Assembly: GCA_020845895.1 (NCBI GenBank)
Contig: JADLEX010000106.1
Span: forward strand, 1-40,686
Length of the DNA: 40,686 bases
Direction of reading: 5' to 3'
From: Deltaproteobacteria bacterium
GTDB taxonomy: Bacteria > Lernaellota > Lernaellaia > JACKCT01
Translations under genes and position numbers: made by a program
Shown: piece by piece, positions 7,892 to 28,871 of the stretch
How positions within the stretch are numbered: position 1 is the first letter of the stretch
Layout: each line of letters opens with the position of its first letter
The notes under the pieces: generated by a model
What the model was told of the DNA's origin: nothing
Database searches by the model: none
What the model saw: only the letters and a program-made list of their open reading frames with translations

Positions 7892-8971
7892 TCAGATTTT
7901 CTGGAACTTCATTGGGATCCTGCCTTTCAGAGCCCGAAGCGCCATGAAAACCGCCGTGGTGGAGAGGAGAACCATCAGAATCTGGCCCCACCACAGATAG
8001 TAATCCTCGAAGACACGGAAGAAGTGACTCAGGAAGCCGGCAGTCAACGCGAGGCAGTTGAGCCCAAAGGCCAGTGCCGGACGCCCCGGCAGAAGTGCAG
8101 CCGTGGCCACCAGGGTCACGGGGGTGGTCATTTGAAAGAGAAACATTCCGAACGTGATCATGACGGGATTCGCGTCACCGAAAGCAAAGAGCAAACCCGA
8201 AATCAACAGCGCGCCGACGCTGACCTCGAGCCAGCCCCACCGATCGGAAAGAATGCCTCCGATGGCCTTGCCCGCGAACGCCGCCGTCGCGACACCGAAC
8301 AGCACCGTCGATTCCCGCGGTAATTCAATGGCACCGGCTTTGCCGAGCAGCGCGCGCAGGGAGATCGAAAACAGCAGTAGCATGATGATCGCGGCGGACT
8401 TGGAGATCGTTGGCACGGATTCCGATCGATCCGTTCGAACCTCCGGCGCCTCCGCAAGCCATGCCACCACAAACGCGATCAGGAGCGCTACGAGAAACGG
8501 CCACGCGACGTAGGCACCGCCTTTTCCGATCATGGTGCCTGCCGCGAGACCCAGCGCTCCGGGTGCGATGAAGACTCCCGGCGGCGTGGCCCGCCCCGGA
8601 TGCACGTGAAGCGACAGCGCTCCCGCACCGACGTGAAATGCCGCGTTCCCCACTCCCGCGAGAATCATCGCCGCATTCGGTCCGCTGGTCAGAAACAACA
8701 TCGAGGCCGCCGACAAGGCGATGCCAACCAGCGCCGTCGCGCGCCAGATCCGAAAGCGGTCGATGAGCAAACCGAGCGGTGCCTGCCCCGCAAACGCGAT
8801 GAGGTCGTAAAATAGGACCAACATCACGCCCTCGCGCACGGAGAGGCCGTGAAATGTCCGGGTCGCGAAAATGACGGTGACCGTGGTGGCGTCGATCAGA
8901 AGATGGATGATGCCAAACACCACCGGAAACGACGCAACGTCGAGAACTCCGTGAAAACCCCGTCGTTCCAT
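7892..8971 (-). CDS. major facilitator superfamily transporter
   Basis: This 359-residue protein has about ten to twelve hydrophobic segments and an MFS-like loop after helix 2 (PLGLLIDRFRIWRA), a variant of the GxxxDRxGRR signature. The second half carries a matching SDRWGW loop. It is shorter than the usual 400 residues. The substrate is unknown. Its ATG shares a base with the stop of the MYXO-CTERM-like gene upstream (TGATG), so the two are co-translated. A remnant of a second copy of its 5' region lies at about 9575-9655, next to the paralogous MYXO-CTERM gene, so the gene pair was once duplicated together. Confidence 0.85.
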   Translation of the reverse strand: MERRGFHGVLDVASFPVVFGIIHLLIDATTVTVIFATRTFHGLSVREGVMLVLFYDLIAFAGQAPLGLLIDRFRIWRATALVGIALSAASMLFLTSGPNAAMILAGVGNAAFHVGAGALSLHVHPGRATPPGVFIAPGALGLAAGTMIGKGGAYVAWPFLVALLIAFVVAWLAEAPEVRTDRSESVPTISKSAAIIMLLLFSISLRALLGKAGAIELPRESTVLFGVATAAFAGKAIGGILSDRWGWLEVSVGALLISGLLFAFGDANPVMITFGMFLFQMTTPVTLVATAALLPGRPALAFGLNCLALTAGFLSHFFRVFEDYYLWWGQILMVLLSTTAVFMALRALKGRIPMKFQKI

Positions 8972-9444
8972 CAGGAGGATTTTCCTTCACGCCGGCTCAG
9001 GACGAGAGCCAGCACGCCAATCCCCAGCATCCCCGCACTCAGGAATGAGCCGGTCTCCGCGTTGGACACGCCGCACACGGCGCAGTCCGAGTCATCGCCG
9101 TCATTGGAAGCATTCCCCTCACCGCTAGGATCGCTGCCGCACACACACTCGTCGAAATCCGCACAGCCGGTGAAGCTCAAGCACGGTTCCATGCTTCTCG
9201 GAGGTGCTTCAACGCACGCATCGAAGAAATCCTCGGGCAGGCAGGTCGTACCGCAGTATTCCGCGAGATTAGTGAGCGCTTCACAGAAAGCACGATCCGC
9301 GTCGTTCGCATCGTCCGCATCGTTATCCGCCGACGATCCGTCGTCAATGTCGTCCCACCCGCCCGGGCCTTCCGACCAGTCCGCCGCGGAGATCAGGGGA
9401 CAAAGCCAAATCAGCGCCGCAACGATCCCAAACATGACGCGCAC
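8971..9444 (-). CDS. secreted Cys-rich protein with MYXO-CTERM-like tail
   Basis: This 157-residue protein has a signal peptide (cleavage about residue 20), an Asp-rich linker and a compact domain of regularly spaced cysteines (FC-x9-C, TTCLPE, EPCLSFTGC, CVCG). The C-terminal sorting tail is a Cys motif (CAVCGVS), a hydrophobic helix (FLSAGMLGIGVLALVL) and SRREGK, the layout of MYXO-CTERM domains that are cut and lipid-anchored at the Cys. The start is GTG at 9444, 10-11 nt after a GGAGGCGGAC ribosome-binding site. The same site and spacing precede the start of the paralog at 10145. The two share cysteine pattern, tail and leader. Confidence 0.82.
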   Translation of the reverse strand: MRVMFGIVAALIWLCPLISAADWSEGPGGWDDIDDGSSADNDADDANDADRAFCEALTNLAEYCGTTCLPEDFFDACVEAPPRSMEPCLSFTGCADFDECVCGSDPSGEGNASNDGDDSDCAVCGVSNAETGSFLSAGMLGIGVLALVLSRREGKSS

Positions 9445-9574
9445 TGTCCGCCTCCAAAATGCCGGATACGTTGCGCCCCGAATTCAATCCATAGAAGTAG
9501 CGTCCATCGATCCTCTAGCCCAATAACACTTTTCTTCAGACAACCGACGGCGGTGCGCATCGGCGCCTCGCACT

Positions 9575-21361: not shown

Positions 21362-23446
21362 TCAGTGCGGACCGGCGGTGAGCGCCTCGGCCTCGGCGAG
21401 CAGCGACTCGACCTCCTTGGCGATCACCTTGGCGTACTCGAAATTGTGCTGCCCGCGTTTCGCGCTCACGAGATCGAGATCGCGCCGAATCAAAATCAGC
21501 CGATTCGAGATCTCGGTCGTGTTCTCCTTCTTCGCGACGCGCTCGTCCACGACCTTTTGGATCGCGTCCACGCGCGGCAACAACTTCGCCGTCAAATCGC
21601 CGAGCGCCGCGAGCTGCATGTCGGCTTTGGCCGAATATGTCGCGTCGTGGCAGTTCGCGCAGGTCGCCTTGACCCCGTCGAGGGTCGTCGTTTGCCCGCC
21701 CTTCGTCTGCACATGGCAATCGACGCATTCGATGTTTGCGTTCATCGGATCGGGATTCCCCGTCACGATGGCCGCCCCGCTTCCCTTCGTCAGGTTGCCG
21801 ATGTTCTGATGACAGTCGGCGCAATCGACCTTGCCCTGCCCCGTTCCATGGTGACAGCCGCTGCACGTGACCATGTTCGTCACGCCGTGCTGCGCGCCTT
21901 CGCCGTGGCACATCGTGCATTCGAACCCAAGGTCCACCACGTGCTTTTTGTGCGGATACTCGACGGAACCGAGTTTCACCTTTCGCTCGGTCATCTCGGC
22001 GTGGCACAGGTTCGTGCAATTCAGCGTGAAGGGCTCGACCGTCTGCGCCGTGTATCCCGGCGTCAGCTTTTCGAGGGCCTGCTCGCTGCGCGCCTCGGCC
22101 GCTTCGAGCGCCTTGATGGCGTACTGCACGTTGTGGTGCCCGCGCGCACGCCTCACGAAATCGACGTTGTGAGCTGCCTCGCCGACGAGTTTCGCGGCTT
22201 CGTCTTTCTTGGCGGGCTCGATCGCGCCCGCGGCGGCCAGCGCGTTTTGCGCCTTGACGAGCCGTGCGCCCGCCCGCGTTTCGCGCTCGAACATCAGGTT
22301 GCGCCACTGCGTGAGCATGGCGTCGTACCCGGGCCCGTGGCAGTCATTGCAGGCTTGCCCATGAACCAGTGAGGCGAGATCGGTGGCCGAGCGGTCGTCC
22401 GGCCCGGACAGACGTTTCACGTGGCACGACGCGCAATCGACGTTGGCCAGATACATACGGGCGGGCTCGTCCGGCACGCCGATCGCGCCGGTGCCCTTGT
22501 ACAGTTCTCGCGGTCCGATGTGCTGATTCGAGGCATGGCATACGGTGCAGTTGGTCTCGAACGACTCGCTGGTCGGGTTCCGCACGATCTCGTGCTTGAT
22601 GACGTCGTGGCAGCGCCAGCACTCGACCTTGTGATTCGTCACGTGGTTCAGATGGTACGACTCAATCGTGTACTTGTCTTTGATGATCTCCTTGAGGGTC
22701 CTCTCGCGCTCGCTGTGGCACTCCATGCAATGGTCGAAATCGACGTTGCCCGCGCCCTCGATGATTCCCTGGTGGCAATTCGTGCAGGCGATGCCGGATT
22801 CGATGTAGCGCCCGTGCGCGAAGGTTTGTCCCTCGGCGAGATGAATCTCGCTTGGAACGGTCTTGTGGCAAGTGCGGCAATCGGAGAGCACTGGGTCGCG
22901 CGCGCCGTTTTCGTCGGCCTTGAAGTGGCAGATGAAGCAATCGCGCGGATCGACGGACAGGTGCTCGCCCTGCACCAACTGGCCGTGACACGTCACGCAG
23001 CGCAGCTTTTTCTCGCGGCGCATCGTACCCAGATGGTTCTCGTGGGAGAACGAGATGCCCTGAAAGTCCTTGGCGTCGTGCAACTGCTCGGAGCTGTGGC
23101 ACTCCTGGCAGCTCAGGTCGGAGATTTCGGCGTGGTATTTGCCCTTCGTTCGGCCCGTCATGAACATGACGAGATGGACTTGGCCGTCCGTAAATTTGCC
23201 CTTCAGGTAATTCCACGTTCCGGGTTCATAGTGGCACTGGGCGCACTGGACCTGATTGTGCGAACTGGTGCGCCAGCTCTCCACGTAGGGCTGCATGTTG
23301 TGGCACGAAGCGCAGAAGTCCGGCGAGCTGGTCGCTTCGAGAAACGCGAACGCCACGAAGGCCACGAAAAGGACCGCGCCGCCCGCGATCAGGAGACGTC
23401 GATTTCGCTTCGATTTGCGTGCCGACCACTCATCCATCGTTGGCAT
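21362..23446 (-). CDS. 18-heme c-type cytochrome with NapC/NirT-like anchor
   Basis: This 694-residue protein has a basic N-terminus, one membrane anchor (about residues 18-37) and 18 heme-binding motifs: 17 CxxCH plus one CxxxCH (CTNLCH). The first site is followed by NMQPYVESWRTSSH, the pattern of NapC/NirT/NrfH quinol dehydrogenases (C-x2-CH-x-M, then W and S-x-H). Helical stretches between the twelfth and thirteenth sites and at the C-terminus lack hemes (for example HNVQYAIKALEAAEAR and HNFEYAKVIAKEVESL), a repeat seen in multiheme oxidoreductases of the NrfA/HAO superfamily. I infer that it takes electrons from menaquinol at the inner membrane and passes them to periplasmic cytochromes. 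It has its own sigma-54-like promoter and terminator, so it is transcribed separately from the porin unit. Confidence 0.9.
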   Translation of the reverse strand: MPTMDEWSARKSKRNRRLLIAGGAVLFVAFVAFAFLEATSSPDFCASCHNMQPYVESWRTSSHNQVQCAQCHYEPGTWNYLKGKFTDGQVHLVMFMTGRTKGKYHAEISDLSCQECHSSEQLHDAKDFQGISFSHENHLGTMRREKKLRCVTCHGQLVQGEHLSVDPRDCFICHFKADENGARDPVLSDCRTCHKTVPSEIHLAEGQTFAHGRYIESGIACTNCHQGIIEGAGNVDFDHCMECHSERERTLKEIIKDKYTIESYHLNHVTNHKVECWRCHDVIKHEIVRNPTSESFETNCTVCHASNQHIGPRELYKGTGAIGVPDEPARMYLANVDCASCHVKRLSGPDDRSATDLASLVHGQACNDCHGPGYDAMLTQWRNLMFERETRAGARLVKAQNALAAAGAIEPAKKDEAAKLVGEAAHNVDFVRRARGHHNVQYAIKALEAAEARSEQALEKLTPGYTAQTVEPFTLNCTNLCHAEMTERKVKLGSVEYPHKKHVVDLGFECTMCHGEGAQHGVTNMVTCSGCHHGTGQGKVDCADCHQNIGNLTKGSGAAIVTGNPDPMNANIECVDCHVQTKGGQTTTLDGVKATCANCHDATYSAKADMQLAALGDLTAKLLPRVDAIQKVVDERVAKKENTTEISNRLILIRRDLDLVSAKRGQHNFEYAKVIAKEVESLLAEAEALTAGPH

Positions 23447-23510
23447 CTCCCACCTTCACACACGGAGCCGGAGGAACGCGGGGCCGAAAAACCGACCGCT
23501 GATCCAAGGA

Positions 23511-23525
23511 GCAATAACAATGCCG
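23511..23525 (-). promoter_or_regulatory. sigma-54 (-24/-12) promoter of the 18-heme gene
   Basis: The minus strand reads CGGCATTGTTATTGC. GG and GC sit at the obligate -24/-12 spacing (TGGCAC-N5-TTGC consensus), with a perfect TTGC and CGGCAT in place of TGGCAC. The predicted start of transcription is near 23499. It is weaker than the matching site before the porin gene, but sits at the same relative position. Confidence 0.55.
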
Positions 23526-23594
23526 CCTCGCCTTTGACGTGGCGTGCAAGAACAGCCCGAAAACGCGGCTTCCCGCGCGAATTTGACCGTCTGT

Positions 23595-23635
23595 CGGTCT
23601 CAAACGACGACGGAATGCCTCATCGCGGTCTGAAA
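23595..23635 (-). promoter_or_regulatory. paired upstream activator-like sites (18-heme unit)
   Basis: Two copies of the plus-strand word CGGTCTCAAA (23595-23604) and CGGTCTGAAA (23626-23635) start 31 bp apart, about three helical turns. The outer copy sits in the longer block ATCGCGGTCTGAAAAT, which matches the porin-unit block at all but one base. They lie 70-110 bp upstream of the -24/-12 promoter, the usual place for enhancer-binding proteins. Confidence 0.5.
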
Positions 23636-23676
23636 ATCAGACCTACGAGATCCGATTCGAATCGCCCGGGCGCGCG

Positions 23677-23707
23677 AAAAATCCGCCGGAGCACGCGGCC
23701 CCGGCGG
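23677..23707 (-). terminator. rho-independent terminator of the porin-cytochrome operon
   Basis: On the minus strand CCGCCGG (23707-23701) and CCGGCGG (23689-23683) form a seven-pair GC stem with an 11-nt loop, followed by ATTTTT. It lies 77 bp after the stop of the tetraheme cytochrome gene and ends the four-gene unit. Confidence 0.75.
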
Positions 23708-23783
23708 TTGCCCAGAAGAGAATGAAGGATTTGCGCGGTTGTCCCCCGGATGGTGATTTCACCCTCCGTGGTTTGTCGTGTCT

Positions 23784-24137
23784 TTACGCTCCGTGGCAGG
23801 TCTTGCAGTCCTTCGGATACTGCGGGCCCTTGGCCGACTTCTTGTGACAGTCGCCGCACTGCTTGTGGAACGCGTCCTTGCCGGGGCCGGCGCCGTCCTT
23901 GCCCGCTTCCGTGTGGCAGGTCGTGCACTTGGAGCCCTGGCCCTTCGGATCCTTGTGATGACAGACTTGGCAGTCGTTGCCGACCTTGGTCAGGTGAGCC
24001 GGATGGTCGAACTGCACGGGCTTTTTGCCGCTGACCGAGACCGTGATCTTGCCCGCCGGCCCGGCGGCCGACGTCGCCAGACTCACCAGTCCCACCGAGC
24101 ACAGCACCACCACCGAAAACATCAGGAACTTCTTCAA
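23784..24137 (-). CDS. tetraheme cytochrome c3-like periplasmic shuttle
   Basis: This 117-residue secreted protein has a signal peptide cut near AASA/AG (about residue 25) and four CxxCH motifs (Cys56, 71, 94 and 111). Extra histidines at 45, 48, 61 and 91 could be the distal ligands, giving four bis-His hemes as in cytochrome c3/c7 families. Many lysines suggest docking to acidic partners. The start is TTG at 24137 with GGAGGG about 7 nt upstream; no nearby ATG preserves the signal peptide. It lies 42 bp after the 22-heme gene and is the last gene of the porin-cytochrome operon. It probably carries electrons across the periplasm. Confidence 0.88.
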   Translation of the reverse strand: MKKFLMFSVVVLCSVGLVSLATSAAGPAGKITVSVSGKKPVQFDHPAHLTKVGNDCQVCHHKDPKGQGSKCTTCHTEAGKDGAGPGKDAFHKQCGDCHKKSAKGPQYPKDCKTCHGA

Positions 24138-24179
24138 GGTTCTACCCTCCTTCTGACGTATAACCCGAACTCTCCACGG

Positions 24180-25934
24180 TCAGGGGTACACGTGACATGC
24201 CGTGCAGGCGAGTCCGACGTCTCCGCCGCTCGAATCGGCTCCGTGACACAATGACGCGCAGCCGGTATCGCCGTTGGTATCGACATACGTGTCGTGCGTG
24301 GTCACCCACCCGCTCTCGTGCGGATACAGGGTGTGACAGGTGAAGCACGAGGTCGCGTTGGGGCTCTGCCAGTCGTTGCCGTGGCAAACCTTGCACGACT
24401 CCTTGCCCGTATCGAGCACCTGCTGGCCGTGCTGGCCGGCTTGGGCATAGCCCGCCACGTGCGGGAACCCCGTGTGGCAGGTGTAGCAGGACACTCCCGA
24501 CTGGCCGCCGGTGTAGTCGGCGCCGTGGCAGACGCCGGCGCAGTTTTCCAGGCCGATGTCGTAAGCCGTCGCGCCGTGGTCGTCGGGCGCGGTCCAGCCG
24601 TCCGCGTGCGGGTACTGATGACAATCGGTGCACGCGACCTGCGAGTCGCCGCCCGCAAACGTCTCGCCGTGGCAGCGCGTGGCGCAGTTGTCGTTGTCGC
24701 TCGCCATCGCCGTCACGCCGTGCTCTTGCCAGTCCGCCCAGTTCGCGTCGTGCGGATAGTCCGCGTGGCAGGTGAAGCAGGAGACGTTGGTGTCTCCGCC
24801 GGCGAAGTCGGTTCCGTGGCACGCGGTGGCGCAGTTCGTCTGACCGTTCTCGATCACGTCCATTCCGTGGTTGTCGGGATCCGACCAGTTGGCCGCGTGC
24901 GGGTAGGTGTGGCACTGGTAGCACGACACCTCGGAATCGCCGCCCTGATAGTCCGTGCCGTGGCACAGCGTGGCGCAGCCGTTCGCCGTGTTGTTCAGCA
25001 CGTACTGTCCGTGCGCGTCCTTGTCCGACCAGCCCGCGTCGTGCGGATAGTTCGCATGGCACTGCGTGCATGCGACGCCCGTGTCGCCGCCGCCAAGGTC
25101 GCTTCCGTGGCACGCGGTGGCACAGGTCTCGTTGCCCGCGTCCAGCGCCCGGCCGCCATGCTCGCGCGGCTGATCCCAGTCGGTGTCGTGCGGATAGTCG
25201 GCGTGGCACTCGAAGCACGAGCCCGCCACGTCGCCGCCCTGGAAGTCCTGGCCGTGACAGACGGTGGCGCAGTACCGGTTGTTGTTGTCCAGCACCCAGC
25301 CGCCATGCTCGTCCTTGTCGGCCCAGTTGTTCTCATGCGGATAGAGTTCGTGGCATTTGTTACAGGAGATTCCGGAGTACCCGCCCTGCAGATCCGATCC
25401 GTGGCACGCCGTCGCGCAGTTCGCGTCCTGACCGCCTTCCTTGCTGTACTCGCCGTGGTTGTTCGGATCGCCGAAGTCGGTCTCGTGCGGGTACAGCGCG
25501 TGGCACTGCGTGCAGGAGACCTTGGCGTCGCCGCCCTTCAGGTCTTCGCCGTGGCAGACCGTGGCGCAACTCTGATTGCGCGTGTCGAACGCCTCGAGGC
25601 CGTGCTCCGTGATCTGCGCCCAGTTCTCGGGATGCGGATAGTTCGCGTGGCACGAGGTGCAGCCGACCTTCGACCAGCCGCCGTCCAGTTTTTCCCCGTG
25701 GCAGGCCACGCACGCCGTGGTCCCCTCGTCGAGCACGTAGATGCCATGCTGCTTCGGCTGGTCCCAGTCGTCCGGATGCGGGTATTCCACGCGCTCCGCT
25801 TCCTCGCCTTCGATCGGCGCCTCGGGGTTGGGGTCCATGCAGGCCGCGAGCCCCATGGCGAGAATCGCGAGGAACAGCGCCGCCGTCATCCCCTGGATCG
25901 CCGTGGCCATTTCCGATTTTTCCCGACTCGACAT
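24180..25934 (-). CDS. 22-heme repeat lipoprotein cytochrome
   Basis: This 584-residue lipoprotein has a lipobox GLAAC (Cys32) followed by about 11 tandem units of roughly 50 residues. The unit consensus is YPH-x3-W-x5-HG, about 11 residues, a first heme motif with trailing G-x-D-x2-GGD, about 4 residues, then a second heme motif. Most units have CxxxCH first (CATVCH, CATACH, CATLCH and so on) and CxxCH second. Units 1 and 10 have CxxCH in both places. In all there are 22 motifs: 13 CxxCH and nine CxxxCH. The WxxxxxHG and YPH histidines could be distal ligands. The repeats suggest a linear heme wire. Position after the porin and 12-heme cytochrome suggests the outer-surface partner of the conduit. 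A GAGGTGA ribosome-binding site supports the start. Confidence 0.88.
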   Translation of the reverse strand: MSSREKSEMATAIQGMTAALFLAILAMGLAACMDPNPEAPIEGEEAERVEYPHPDDWDQPKQHGIYVLDEGTTACVACHGEKLDGGWSKVGCTSCHANYPHPENWAQITEHGLEAFDTRNQSCATVCHGEDLKGGDAKVSCTQCHALYPHETDFGDPNNHGEYSKEGGQDANCATACHGSDLQGGYSGISCNKCHELYPHENNWADKDEHGGWVLDNNNRYCATVCHGQDFQGGDVAGSCFECHADYPHDTDWDQPREHGGRALDAGNETCATACHGSDLGGGDTGVACTQCHANYPHDAGWSDKDAHGQYVLNNTANGCATLCHGTDYQGGDSEVSCYQCHTYPHAANWSDPDNHGMDVIENGQTNCATACHGTDFAGGDTNVSCFTCHADYPHDANWADWQEHGVTAMASDNDNCATRCHGETFAGGDSQVACTDCHQYPHADGWTAPDDHGATAYDIGLENCAGVCHGADYTGGQSGVSCYTCHTGFPHVAGYAQAGQHGQQVLDTGKESCKVCHGNDWQSPNATSCFTCHTLYPHESGWVTTHDTYVDTNGDTGCASLCHGADSSGGDVGLACTACHVYP

Positions 25935-25951
25935 CGCTCACCTCGACCGTG

Positions 25952-26980
25952 TCAGTGACTGTGGCACTCGGCGCACATCCGGTCCGTCTGCTTCACACCC
26001 TGGGGATCCCATCCCTTGGGGTGCGGATTGAGTCCCAATGAAGAGCGGTGACAGGTCCGGCAATCGCCGGGGCCGCCGCGATCGTGGCAGCTCGCGCACG
26101 CGAGGGTCTCGGTGCGGGCTTTTTCGCCGTGGAAATCCTGGGAGCCCTTCGTCATCCAGCCCGCGGGGTGCCGGTAGACGGACGTCTCGGCACGCGCCCC
26201 GACGCCGCGCTGATTGTGGCAGTCAGTGCAGGATTTCGTGCCGTGGCACTTGAGGCACGAGGCCTGATTGACCTTCGCCTCGATGCGATGCGTGGTTTCC
26301 CAGTCGCCGCGATGGATGAGGCCCGCCCGCACCTTCTCGGGGTACTTCAGGCTGGGCTTCAGGTCCTCGTGCTTGTTGTGGCAATCGAGGCAGTAGCTCT
26401 CGGTATGGCACTGCGTGCAGGTCTTGCCGTTTTTGCGCGCGTATTCCGAGTGCCGCCCCATGAAGTCGTTCGCGTGCTTATAGGACGACAGCTTCGTTAG
26501 ACCGATGCCGCCGAAGTCCATGTGGCACTTCGCGCATAGCATCTGGTCGAAATCTTCCTGATGGCATTCCACGCACTTCGCATGGTCGGGCTTGCCGATG
26601 CCCGCGCCGACGCCGTAGGCGCCGTGGCAGTCCTGGCATTTCTTGTCGAATTCCTTGTGCGCGACGTGCGAAAACCCGACCGCCCGCTTGTACGACTTCG
26701 CGGGTTCGTAATTCAGCGCCTTCACGTCCTCGTGGCACGCCTTGCAGGATTCGAGCGAGGGGACGACGCGCATCACGCCGCCGTCTTTTTCGATCGCGCC
26801 GTGACAGACGTTGCATTCGAGTCCGACGTTCGCATTCAGGTGCTTGGCGTGCAGGTCCTTGGCGGAAACCGTCGTCTTCGCCGGCGCGGTCGCCGCTCCC
26901 GCGAGAACGATTGCGAGCGCCGCGACACCGAGCACGAGCGCGAAAGCCAAACCGCGGTGTTGATGGGGAAACGCGCGCAT
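25952..26980 (-). CDS. 12-heme secreted c-type cytochrome (porin-embedded partner)
   Basis: This 342-residue protein has a signal peptide (MRAFPHQHRG then a hydrophobic core, cleavage near ATAPA) and 12 CxxCH motifs spread evenly along the chain, beginning CNVCH and ending CAECH. No lipobox is present, so it is periplasmic. The ATG at 26980 shares a base with the porin's stop (TAATG), which signals coupled synthesis; a GTG 9 bp upstream is an alternative. Size, heme number and pairing with a porin match the electron-conducting cytochromes that sit inside the barrel of MtrAB- or OmaB/OmbB-type conduits (those carry 8-12 hemes). Sequence similarity to those was not testable here. Confidence 0.88.
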   Translation of the reverse strand: MRAFPHQHRGLAFALVLGVAALAIVLAGAATAPAKTTVSAKDLHAKHLNANVGLECNVCHGAIEKDGGVMRVVPSLESCKACHEDVKALNYEPAKSYKRAVGFSHVAHKEFDKKCQDCHGAYGVGAGIGKPDHAKCVECHQEDFDQMLCAKCHMDFGGIGLTKLSSYKHANDFMGRHSEYARKNGKTCTQCHTESYCLDCHNKHEDLKPSLKYPEKVRAGLIHRGDWETTHRIEAKVNQASCLKCHGTKSCTDCHNQRGVGARAETSVYRHPAGWMTKGSQDFHGEKARTETLACASCHDRGGPGDCRTCHRSSLGLNPHPKGWDPQGVKQTDRMCAECHSH

Positions 26981-28239
26981 TAGAGCCACCGTTCCACGTT
27001 GTAGGTGATCTTGAGGAGCCCGCGAACATCCGAGTCGTAATACGGCGTGGCGCGGTAGATGCCGGTCGCCTGCACGCCGAGCTTCTTCGTGATCGCGTAG
27101 CCGAGGCTCAGGTCGCCGTCGAAGGCCTGATCGACGCCGTAGATCTCGTTGTCGAGCTGATAGAGGTTGCTGTTCACGGCGACGTGCGCCTTGTCGAACA
27201 GTCCCTGATACAGATAGGCGCGGATTTCGCTGTAACCGTTATCGCCGCGGTCGAGGCGGTAGTAGCGGCCGCCCAGCACGTTGCCGCGCGCCGCGCCCCA
27301 CAGCAGTTCGAGGCCTCCGCCGGGCCGGGACGCGTTGTCGGCTTCGTCGTAGGTGTAGGCCGCGTAGCCACCGATCGCGCGCACCCGATTCAGGATCAGG
27401 TACGACAACTCGGCGTCGGCGATGTCGAGGGTCTCGGCGGAGAACACCGAGAAGTAGTTCATCGCTCCCAGGAACGCCGAGGGGAACAGGTGCGTGTACG
27501 TGCCGGTCACGCGAAGGTCGTTGACGGGATTAAGATTGAGCTGGCCGGTCGCGTCGTAAACTTCCTGATAGATCTGACTGAACCAGACGTGGCCGACGAG
27601 ATCGATGTATTTGATCGGGGCGATGCGCAGGTCGCCGCCGACGTTGTTGCGGTCCCAGCGGTGCTTTTCGAGCCCCGCGCCGTAGGCCGCGCCGAGTTCG
27701 AAATAGCCCTTGAATTCGTAGGAAACGCGGGCGCCCCAGGCGAAGTCGCCGTCGCGCTCGCCGATGCGCGAATACGCCGGCATGCCGCCGAACATCTGAA
27801 TGTTGAAGCCGCAAAACGGCGTGAGCAGCAGATCGACCGCGTCCATGATCTCGGCGGTCGGTCCCGACACCACGAAGTGCCGGCCGAGCTTCGCGTCCAC
27901 CAGCCCGTCGAGGCCCTTCCACTGCAGGTAGGCGTAGGTTAGATCGGCGTCGCCGGGTTGCTCCTGATCTTCATCTTCGGTGTCCGCCGCGTCCCAGCGG
28001 CCCCAACCCGAGAAGTGCAGCGTCATTCCGGAGACGCCGAACTCCTGGGCGTGGACGTCCGCGTATTCGTAGAGCGAAAAGCGGCTGGTGTCCCGCCCGA
28101 GCCAAGATTCTTCGTAAACCGAGGAAAGCGTTTTCGAGCTTCCGTAGAAGTCCGCCGCCAGACCCGGCGCGGCCCAGACGCCCAGAATGATCAGGGCGAG
28201 AAGGACCGTCACGGCTCGTGATTTCATCCCGGTGTTCAT
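26980..28239 (-). CDS. outer-membrane beta-barrel porin of a cytochrome conduit
   Basis: This 419-residue protein has a signal peptide (MKSRAVTVLLALIILG, cleaved after GLAA) and a mature part of alternating polar/apolar strands rich in Tyr, Trp and Gly (for example DLTYAYLQWKGL, VSYEFKGYFELGAAYGAG, LGGRYYRLDRG). It ends in a strand with aromatic and hydrophobic residues (LLKITYNVERWL), though not in the terminal Phe usual for porins. There are no heme motifs. The start at 28239 follows GGAAAGGG by about 9 nt; a longer in-frame start would add a non-hydrophobic leader. As first gene of the operon, coupled to the 12-heme cytochrome, it is the likely sheath of a porin-cytochrome electron conduit. 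The role is inferred from gene order, not from a named family match. Confidence 0.85.
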   Translation of the reverse strand: MNTGMKSRAVTVLLALIILGVWAAPGLAADFYGSSKTLSSVYEESWLGRDTSRFSLYEYADVHAQEFGVSGMTLHFSGWGRWDAADTEDEDQEQPGDADLTYAYLQWKGLDGLVDAKLGRHFVVSGPTAEIMDAVDLLLTPFCGFNIQMFGGMPAYSRIGERDGDFAWGARVSYEFKGYFELGAAYGAGLEKHRWDRNNVGGDLRIAPIKYIDLVGHVWFSQIYQEVYDATGQLNLNPVNDLRVTGTYTHLFPSAFLGAMNYFSVFSAETLDIADAELSYLILNRVRAIGGYAAYTYDEADNASRPGGGLELLWGAARGNVLGGRYYRLDRGDNGYSEIRAYLYQGLFDKAHVAVNSNLYQLDNEIYGVDQAFDGDLSLGYAITKKLGVQATGIYRATPYYDSDVRGLLKITYNVERWL

Positions 28240-28560: not shown

Positions 28561-28590
28561 AAAATGGGCGACCCGCCGCGCGAGTCGCCC
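28561..28590 (-). terminator. terminator of the truncated tRNA gene
   Basis: On the minus strand GGGCGAC (28590-28584) pairs with GTCGCCC (28572-28566), then ATTTTCG. It is a classic intrinsic terminator 15 bp after the tRNA 3' end and is presumably the original tRNA terminator. Confidence 0.7.
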
Positions 28591-28604
28591 TTCCAATTTC
28601 ATCT

Positions 28605-28645
28605 CGGGGCAGGAGGGATTCGAACCCCCGACCTACGGATTCCCC
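28605..28645 (-). tRNA. 3'-end fragment of a tRNA gene (possible att site)
   Basis: The minus strand gives a complete T-arm, GGGGG-TTCGAAT-CCCTC (28629-28613, one G-T pair), an acceptor 3' strand CTGCCCC (28612-28606) and a G discriminator (28605). No matching 5' acceptor (GGGGCAG), D-arm or anticodon arm exists in the 100 bases upstream, where DUF1566 coding sequence is found instead. Only the tRNA 3' third and its terminator remain. This is the form of a displaced tRNA end left at the distal boundary of an integrated element. The tRNA's identity cannot be told without the anticodon. Confidence 0.65.
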
Positions 28646-28871
28646 GCGCCAGCGAACGAAGCTCGTCGATGCTGAGGACGCGCCGGTTGTCGTCTCCGTC
28701 CAGTTCCAGCCCACCGCAATACGTCAACGCGTCGGCGAACTGCACGTGTGTCGACTGGTAAGAGTCGCGGCAGCACATCGACCCCGTGACGTTGTCGGTC
28801 CAGGTCAGGTCCGTGTCATCGTCTCCCGAATCATCGTCGGCGGTGTCGTCATCGTCGGGTCCCATTCCCAA
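28638..28871 (-). pseudogene. fragment of an Asp-rich DUF1566-type gene
   Basis: The minus-strand frame reads an Asp-rich linker (PDDDDTADDDSGDDD), then LTWTDNVTG, a Cys-containing stretch, ADALTYCGGLELDGDD and IDELRSLARG. This is the recognisable start of a DUF1566 (Lcl C-terminal-like) domain as found in lipoproteins. The signal peptide is missing: an upstream stop lies in frame and only a TTG is available. After ARG the frame runs directly into tRNA sequence (SGVRIPPAP is merely the translated T-arm). Both ends are therefore lost and the fragment is a scar. Confidence 0.6.

What the first reader, a model, noticed from the sequence alone, without database searches (positions are those of the whole stretch)
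21362..28239. Apparently complete extracellular electron-transfer chain with 56 heme motifs in seven kilobases
Seen: a NapC-like anchored 18-heme cytochrome, a tetraheme c3-like protein, a 12-heme secreted cytochrome coupled by TAATG to a beta-barrel porin, and a 22-heme lipoprotein, all on one strand. Known: porin-cytochrome conduits (MtrCAB in Shewanella, OmbB-OmaB-OmcB and Ext clusters in Geobacter) pair a porin with a periplasmic cytochrome and a surface lipoprotein cytochrome. Inferred: quinol, 18-heme, tetraheme, 12-heme/porin, then 22-heme at the surface. The inclusion of inner-membrane, periplasmic and outer-membrane parts at one locus and the unusual repeat cytochrome make it look like a new conduit type.
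Basis: partly seen in the sequence, partly recalled or inferred. Interest (0 to 1): 0.9.

Follow-up and report, generated by a model that had tools for sequence, protein, structure and literature searches.

The report
Porin–cytochrome conduit with repeat heme lipoprotein
An uncultured bacterium of the little-known Lernaellota phylum carries genes for a protein wire that probably moves electrons through its outer membrane; it belongs to a kind already known from Geobacter, but its surface protein is built from a repeated two-heme block whose copy number varies from one to eleven between relatives.

Summary
On the minus strand, four cytochrome genes and a barrel gene lie in 6.9 kb, with 56 heme motifs (46 CXXCH, 10 CX3CH). 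[quoted passage not shown] It is not a new conduit type. The porin is homologous over its whole length to Geobacterales porins in porin/5-heme/lipoprotein clusters (extEFG-like, 1.7e-57) and more weakly to porin/8-heme/lipoprotein clusters (ombB-omaB-omcB-like, 8.6e-18). The 12-heme protein contains the same core plus an N-terminal c7-like part. It is not MtrAB. New are the host phylum (FEN-1099/Ca. Lernaellota), the 12/13-heme partner, and a surface lipoprotein of 1 to 11 copies of a ~49-residue di-heme unit with two histidines per heme. The NapC-like 18-heme gene is probably a separate unit: 337-bp gap with a terminator-like hairpin, not next to the conduit in relatives. The single-locus quinol-to-surface chain is plausible but unproven. 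New variant of a known kind.

The parts
26980..28239 (-). Outer-membrane porin, 419 aa, signal peptide, predicted 22-strand barrel
   Evidence: AF2 model pLDDT 78; no Pfam/NCBIfam hit; homologous to Geobacterales Pcc porins
25952..26980 (-). 12-heme periplasmic cytochrome, 342 aa, Sec signal, no lipobox; start codon overlaps porin stop (TAATG)
26213..26545 (-). Five-heme core of the 12-heme protein (hemes 5-9, signature IHRGDW..H), shared with the pentaheme of extEFG-like clusters
   Evidence: hhalign 3.4e-30
25958..26479 (-). OmaB-like part of the 12-heme protein (hemes 6-12 aligned to a Geobacterales octaheme)
   Evidence: hhalign 1.1e-32
26546..26851 (-). N-terminal c7-like heme part (hemes 1-4) absent from the OmaB-like and pentaheme partners
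   Evidence: Pfam PF14522 47-94; alignments
24180..25934 (-). 22-heme lipoprotein, 584 aa, lipobox GLAAC followed by Met
24183..25784 (-). Array of 11 di-heme units of 47-50 aa (PH..HG..CATxCHGxDxxGG...CxxCH); mean pairwise identity of the first ten 46% aa, 64% nt; 44 His for 22 hemes
23784..24137 (-). Tetraheme c3-like periplasmic cytochrome, 117 aa, 8 His for 4 hemes; same position in G001 and G002
   Evidence: Pfam PF02085
23683..23707 (-). Terminator-like hairpin (10 pairs, 9 GC) followed by ATTTTT, between the tetraheme and NapC-like genes
   Evidence: the total number of such sites in the region is at chance
21362..23446 (-). NapC/NirT-anchored 18-heme cytochrome, 694 aa, one TM helix at 18-36; probably a separate transcription unit
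   Evidence: PF03264, PF14522, PF02085; homologues

Best explanation
Positions 23784-28239 encode an outer-membrane electron conduit of the Pcc kind. The porin forms a sheath in the outer membrane. The 12-heme cytochrome sits in or against it: hemes 5-9 are the core shared by all its relatives and probably cross the barrel, while the N-terminal c7-like hemes reach into the periplasm. The lipid-anchored 22-heme protein sits outside as a chain of eleven di-heme blocks, all hemes probably bis-histidine ligated, and exchanges electrons with an external partner. The tetraheme protein shuttles electrons in the periplasm. The NapC-like 18-heme protein is a likely, but separately transcribed, link to the quinone pool. 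Shown here: gene content, motifs, predicted barrel, homology to Pcc porins and cytochromes, conserved pairing, variable repeat number. Inferred: membrane placement, order of electron flow, direction, and substrate.
For: 56 motifs confirmed. 22-strand barrel model. Porin profile matches 52 of 386 genomes and 31 of 32 examined have a multiheme gene alongside. Full-length homology of the porin to the porin of Geobacterales porin/5-heme/lipoprotein clusters (1.7e-57) and weaker to porin/8-heme/lipoprotein clusters, tandem in G480 (8.6e-18). The 12-heme protein matches the octaheme (1.1e-32) and pentaheme (3.4e-30) partners, far above an unrelated multiheme control (4e-11 with large gaps). Porin and 12/13-heme gene are adjacent in all five class relatives that have the porin, and the porins form one clade (96/92). 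Lipobox without Asp at +2. Exactly two His per heme in the 22-heme, tetraheme and G004 two-heme proteins. The genome encodes two cytochrome c assembly proteins (PF01578).
Against: No experiment. The porin model resembles only generic barrels in the PDB. The 22-heme model is uninformative (pLDDT 34), so the wire shape is inferred. The NapC-like gene is not tightly linked. Geobacterales clusters were assigned by gene order and heme count because G. sulfurreducens itself is not held.
Confidence: 0.82

Rival explanations
1. A categorically new, self-contained quinol-to-surface electron chain encoded as one operon.
For: Five genes on one strand with inner-membrane, periplasmic and outer-membrane parts; in G001 the NapC-like gene lies on the same contig and strand.
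Against: Porin and periplasmic cytochrome belong to known Pcc families. Hairpin and 337-bp gap before the NapC-like gene. NapC-like gene about 8 kb away in G001, on another contig in G002, and not found in G003-G006, of which G003, G004 and G005 keep the conduit. Its homologues elsewhere neighbour cytochrome b or NrfD quinol complexes.
Confidence: 0.1
2. The same conduit working inward: electrons taken from outside (Fe(II), a syntrophic partner or a cathode) and passed to the quinone pool.
For: Sequence does not fix direction; related porin-cytochrome systems are proposed for uptake (PioAB, PMC6831781; OetABI in ANME partners, PMC10553843).
Against: No iron-oxidation or autotrophy genes were sought here. 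The genome has NrfHA, which fits a respiring anaerobe with quinol-fed periplasmic acceptors.
Confidence: 0.25
3. An ordinary carbohydrate or nutrient porin beside unrelated soluble cytochromes.
For: Foldseek hits are AlgE, Occ porins and ushers.
Against: Those hits have low TM-scores and 6-12% identity; 31/32 homologues are next to multiheme genes; translational coupling to the 12-heme gene.
Confidence: 0.03

Closest known systems
Geobacter OmbB-OmaB-OmcB (Pcc)
   Same: Porin, periplasmic multiheme and surface lipoprotein cytochrome in a row; periplasmic octaheme aligns to hemes 6-12 of the 12-heme protein; porins homologous
   Different: Partner has 12/13 hemes with an extra N-terminal c7-like part; lipoprotein is an unrelated di-heme repeat; porin more distant (8.6e-18)
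Geobacter ExtEFG-like clusters (porin, 5-heme, multiheme lipoprotein)
   Same: Closest porin (1.7e-57, full length); pentaheme equals hemes 5-9
   Different: Partner has only 5 hemes and a lipobox; surface cytochrome differs; assigned by gene order, not by name
Geobacter ExtABCD
   Same: A dodecaheme periplasmic cytochrome with a porin and lipoproteins (PMC6148476)
   Different: No ExtA sequence was available, so homology is untested
Shewanella MtrCAB / PioAB
   Same: Works alike: cytochrome through a barrel, lipoprotein outside
   Different: No MtrB_PioB match to the porin or in the genome; 12-heme protein matches the DmsE/MtrA model at 13 bits against a cut-off of 192
PCC3 of iron oxidizers (PMC5566968)
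   Same: Large extracellular multiheme protein made of repeats
   Different: No 5-TM WX3HX13H inner-membrane protein at this locus; periplasmic protein has 12 hemes, not a median of 21
OmcS/OmcE/OmcZ cytochrome nanowires
   Same: Multiheme surface cytochromes with many bis-His hemes (established knowledge)
   Different: No sequence match of the 22-heme protein to any PDB entry; lipoprotein with repeats in one chain rather than a polymer

Membership tests
Pcc porin-cytochrome conduit (OmbB-OmaB-OmcB / extEFG kind) | Porin-like outer-membrane barrel homologous to Pcc porins | tested here: met
   22 strands; hhalign 1.7e-57 and 8.6e-18 to Geobacterales cluster porins; clusters assigned by gene order
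Pcc porin-cytochrome conduit (OmbB-OmaB-OmcB / extEFG kind) | Adjacent periplasmic multiheme c-cytochrome of the family | tested here: met
   1.1e-32 to octaheme, 3.4e-30 to pentaheme; control 4e-11
Pcc porin-cytochrome conduit (OmbB-OmaB-OmcB / extEFG kind) | Outer-membrane multiheme lipoprotein in the cluster | tested here: met
   Lipobox and 22 motifs; outer-membrane placement is inferred from the lipobox. The sequence itself is unrelated, as is usual for Pcc surface cytochromes (PMC4245776)
[quoted passage not shown]
   Needs proteoliposomes or mutants
MtrCAB | MtrB/PioB porin family (PF11854) | tested here: not met
   No match in protein or genome
MtrCAB | MtrA/DmsE-type decaheme partner (TIGR03508) | tested here: not met
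   13.1 bits, cut-off 192.2
ExtHIJKL | ExtKL (seleno)protein (NF040886) | tested here: not met
   Not among the 12-heme protein's matches
ExtABCD | ExtA dodecaheme / ExtB porin homology | not tested
   G. sulfurreducens genome not held
PCC3 | Conserved ~300-aa five-helix inner-membrane protein | tested here: not met
   Neighbouring genes are a two-helix zinc-ribbon protein and a sulfatase
NapC/NirT quinol dehydrogenases (18-heme protein) | N-terminal TM helix and NapC/NirT heme domain (PF03264) | tested here: met
   56.9 bits, cut-off 24.1; TM 18-36
NapC/NirT quinol dehydrogenases (18-heme protein) | Quinol oxidation | not testable with these tools
   Biochemistry needed

The most novel reading that the evidence does not exclude
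The lipoprotein is a length-adjustable, membrane-anchored heme wire: one conserved porin/12-heme base carries a stack of 1 to 11 di-heme units of the same geometry, so evolution changes how far from the cell electrons are delivered by adding or deleting units, without polymerising a separate nanowire.
Probability: 0.3. Interest if true: 0.72.

Novelty: new variant of a known kind. Interest (0 to 1): 0.45.

Why it matters
It gives a phylum known only from metagenomes (FEN-1099/Ca. Lernaellota) a concrete predicted means of trading electrons with minerals, electrodes or other cells. The Lernaellota proteins also link families that were described as sharing no homology in Geobacter (PMC6148476): the octaheme and pentaheme partners share one five-heme core (5.6e-22) and their porins align end to end (4e-16), pointing to a common minimal barrel-crossing unit. 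The series of lipoproteins with 1 to 11 repeat units is a natural set for testing how heme-chain length affects electron delivery.

Tried and rejected
AF2 of the 22-heme lipoprotein (4-row alignment): pLDDT 34, unusable, so no fold search was run on it. Foldseek of the porin model against PDB: only generic barrels, TM under 0.6. Attempt to reach G. sulfurreducens through a PpcA search: 100% match absent, so related Geobacterales were used. Rejected: MtrAB membership, PCC3, ExtHIJKL, carbohydrate porin. Promoter scan gave nothing. Tandem repeats at DNA level: none in the 22-heme gene, so the repeats are old.

Full report
Observation. The window is the whole of contig C106 of a 4.98-Mb, 99.5% complete genome in 171 contigs. 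All five genes lie on the minus strand: porin 28239-26980, 12-heme 26980-25952, 22-heme lipoprotein 25934-24180, tetraheme 24137-23784, NapC-like 18-heme 23446-21362. There are 46 CXXCH and 10 CX3CH motifs, 56 in all; the remaining 34 kb hold two CXXCH in six frames. Porin and 12-heme genes overlap by one base (TAATG). Gaps are 17 bp to the lipoprotein and 42 bp to the tetraheme, then 337 bp to the NapC-like gene. That last gap holds a 10-pair GC-rich hairpin followed by ATTTTT. The number of such sites in the region is at chance (7 found, 6.5 expected), so this is suggestive only.

Host. FEN-1099 is the proposed phylum Ca. Lernaellota (PMC13248872). The class holds only seven genomes in this collection. 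Five papers found mention the phylum; only the one with the most mentions was opened, and it holds neither 'cytochrome' nor 'extracellular electron'.

Porin. No Pfam or NCBIfam family matches and the genome has no MtrB_PioB match. AlphaFold2 gives a 22-strand barrel (mean pLDDT 78). A profile of the family matches 52 of 386 genomes spread over many families. Of 32 examined loci outside the class, 31 have a multiheme cytochrome gene next to the porin. Eight Geobacterales genomes, reached through a PpcA search, all carry homologues in two kinds of cluster: porin/8-heme/multiheme lipoprotein, tandemly duplicated in G480 as ombB-omaB-omcB is in Geobacter (PMC6148476), and porin/5-heme lipoprotein/multiheme lipoprotein, the order reported for extEFG. 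Profile comparison of the class porins gives 1.7e-57 over the full length to the second kind and 8.6e-18 to the first. In a tree of 42 porins the class forms one clade (96/92) that joins the 5-heme kind rather than the OmbB-like kind (that fork 90/90, open).

12-heme protein. Residues 149-259 (hemes 5-9) align with the pentaheme with heme spacing kept (3.4e-30), and residues 171-344 with the octaheme (1.1e-32). An unrelated multiheme pair gave 4e-11 with large gaps, so heme motifs alone do not explain these scores. Hemes 1-4 are an extra c7-like part. The pentaheme and octaheme families also match each other (5.6e-22) and so do their porins (4e-16), although the Geobacter conduits were described as sharing no homology (PMC6148476).

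Lipoprotein. The 22-heme protein consists of a lipobox segment and eleven units of 47-50 residues, each with CXXCH and, in nine, a CATxCH-like CX3CH motif. It has exactly 44 histidines for 22 motifs, consistent with bis-histidine ligation of every heme, CX3CH ones included. CX3CH binding of heme c is documented (PMC11024163 by mass shift; PMC4245776 citing earlier work). At the same position relatives have 12 motifs (G001), at least 12, split by a frameshift (G002), 8 (G005), and a single two-heme unit (G004: four His, lipobox); G003 has an unrelated small heme lipoprotein. Units are about 64% identical in DNA with no tandem repeat detected at DNA level, so the duplications are old. Its fold could not be predicted.

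NapC-like protein. It has a NapC/NirT domain and one TM helix. Full-length relatives occur in G001 (same contig, about 8 kb from the conduit) and G002 (another contig), not in G003-G006, and at about 33% identity in other phyla. There the neighbours include cytochrome b or NrfD-type membrane subunits. It is therefore a plausible quinol oxidase feeding several acceptors, not a demonstrated part of this conduit. The genome also encodes NrfHA and two cytochrome c assembly proteins.

Conclusion. The locus is a Pcc-kind outer-membrane electron conduit with a 12/13-heme partner and an unusual repeat lipoprotein. It works like, and by tested features belongs with, the OmbB-OmaB/extEFG superfamily, and fails MtrAB, ExtHIJKL and PCC3 tests. 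Direction, substrate and the wire geometry are inferred. Pcc clusters with inner-membrane and periplasmic companions and atypical motifs were known (PMC4245776), so this is a new variant, not a new type.

Noticed in passing
window 28600-28650 (-) and hairpin 28566-28590 (-): Sequence like the 3' half of a tRNA (T-arm GGGGGTTCGAATCCC) followed by a terminator-like hairpin upstream of the porin; ARAGORN finds no tRNA and the Rfam match is below threshold. Possibly a tRNA remnant or attachment site.
   Followed up: partly
L025:5996-7184 and 8200-9567 (JAOSJX010000013.1): In G002 both the porin and the repeat lipoprotein genes are split by frameshifts, from assembly error or decay.
   Followed up: partly
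L164, L165, L167-L172: Octaheme (OmaB-like) and pentaheme (extEFG-like) partners of Geobacterales conduits share a five-heme core, and their porins align end to end, although described as lacking homology.
   Followed up: yes
L059:8505-13137 (JACPTQ010000077.1): Porin/13-heme pair followed by a 701-aa open frame with about 31 heme motifs and an N-terminal hydrophobic segment, in a MAG labelled Myxococcota by the tree tool.
   Followed up: no
L024:2943-4259: G005 has a second, unrelated 16-heme lipoprotein gene directly upstream of the porin.
   Followed up: no
L125, L127, L129: Relatives of the NapC-like 18-heme protein lie beside cytochrome b or NrfD-type subunits and many other multiheme genes, suggesting a wider quinol-complex family.
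   Followed up: partly
L056:8297-10391: Same genome encodes NrfH and an NrfA-like nitrite reductase.
   Followed up: yes
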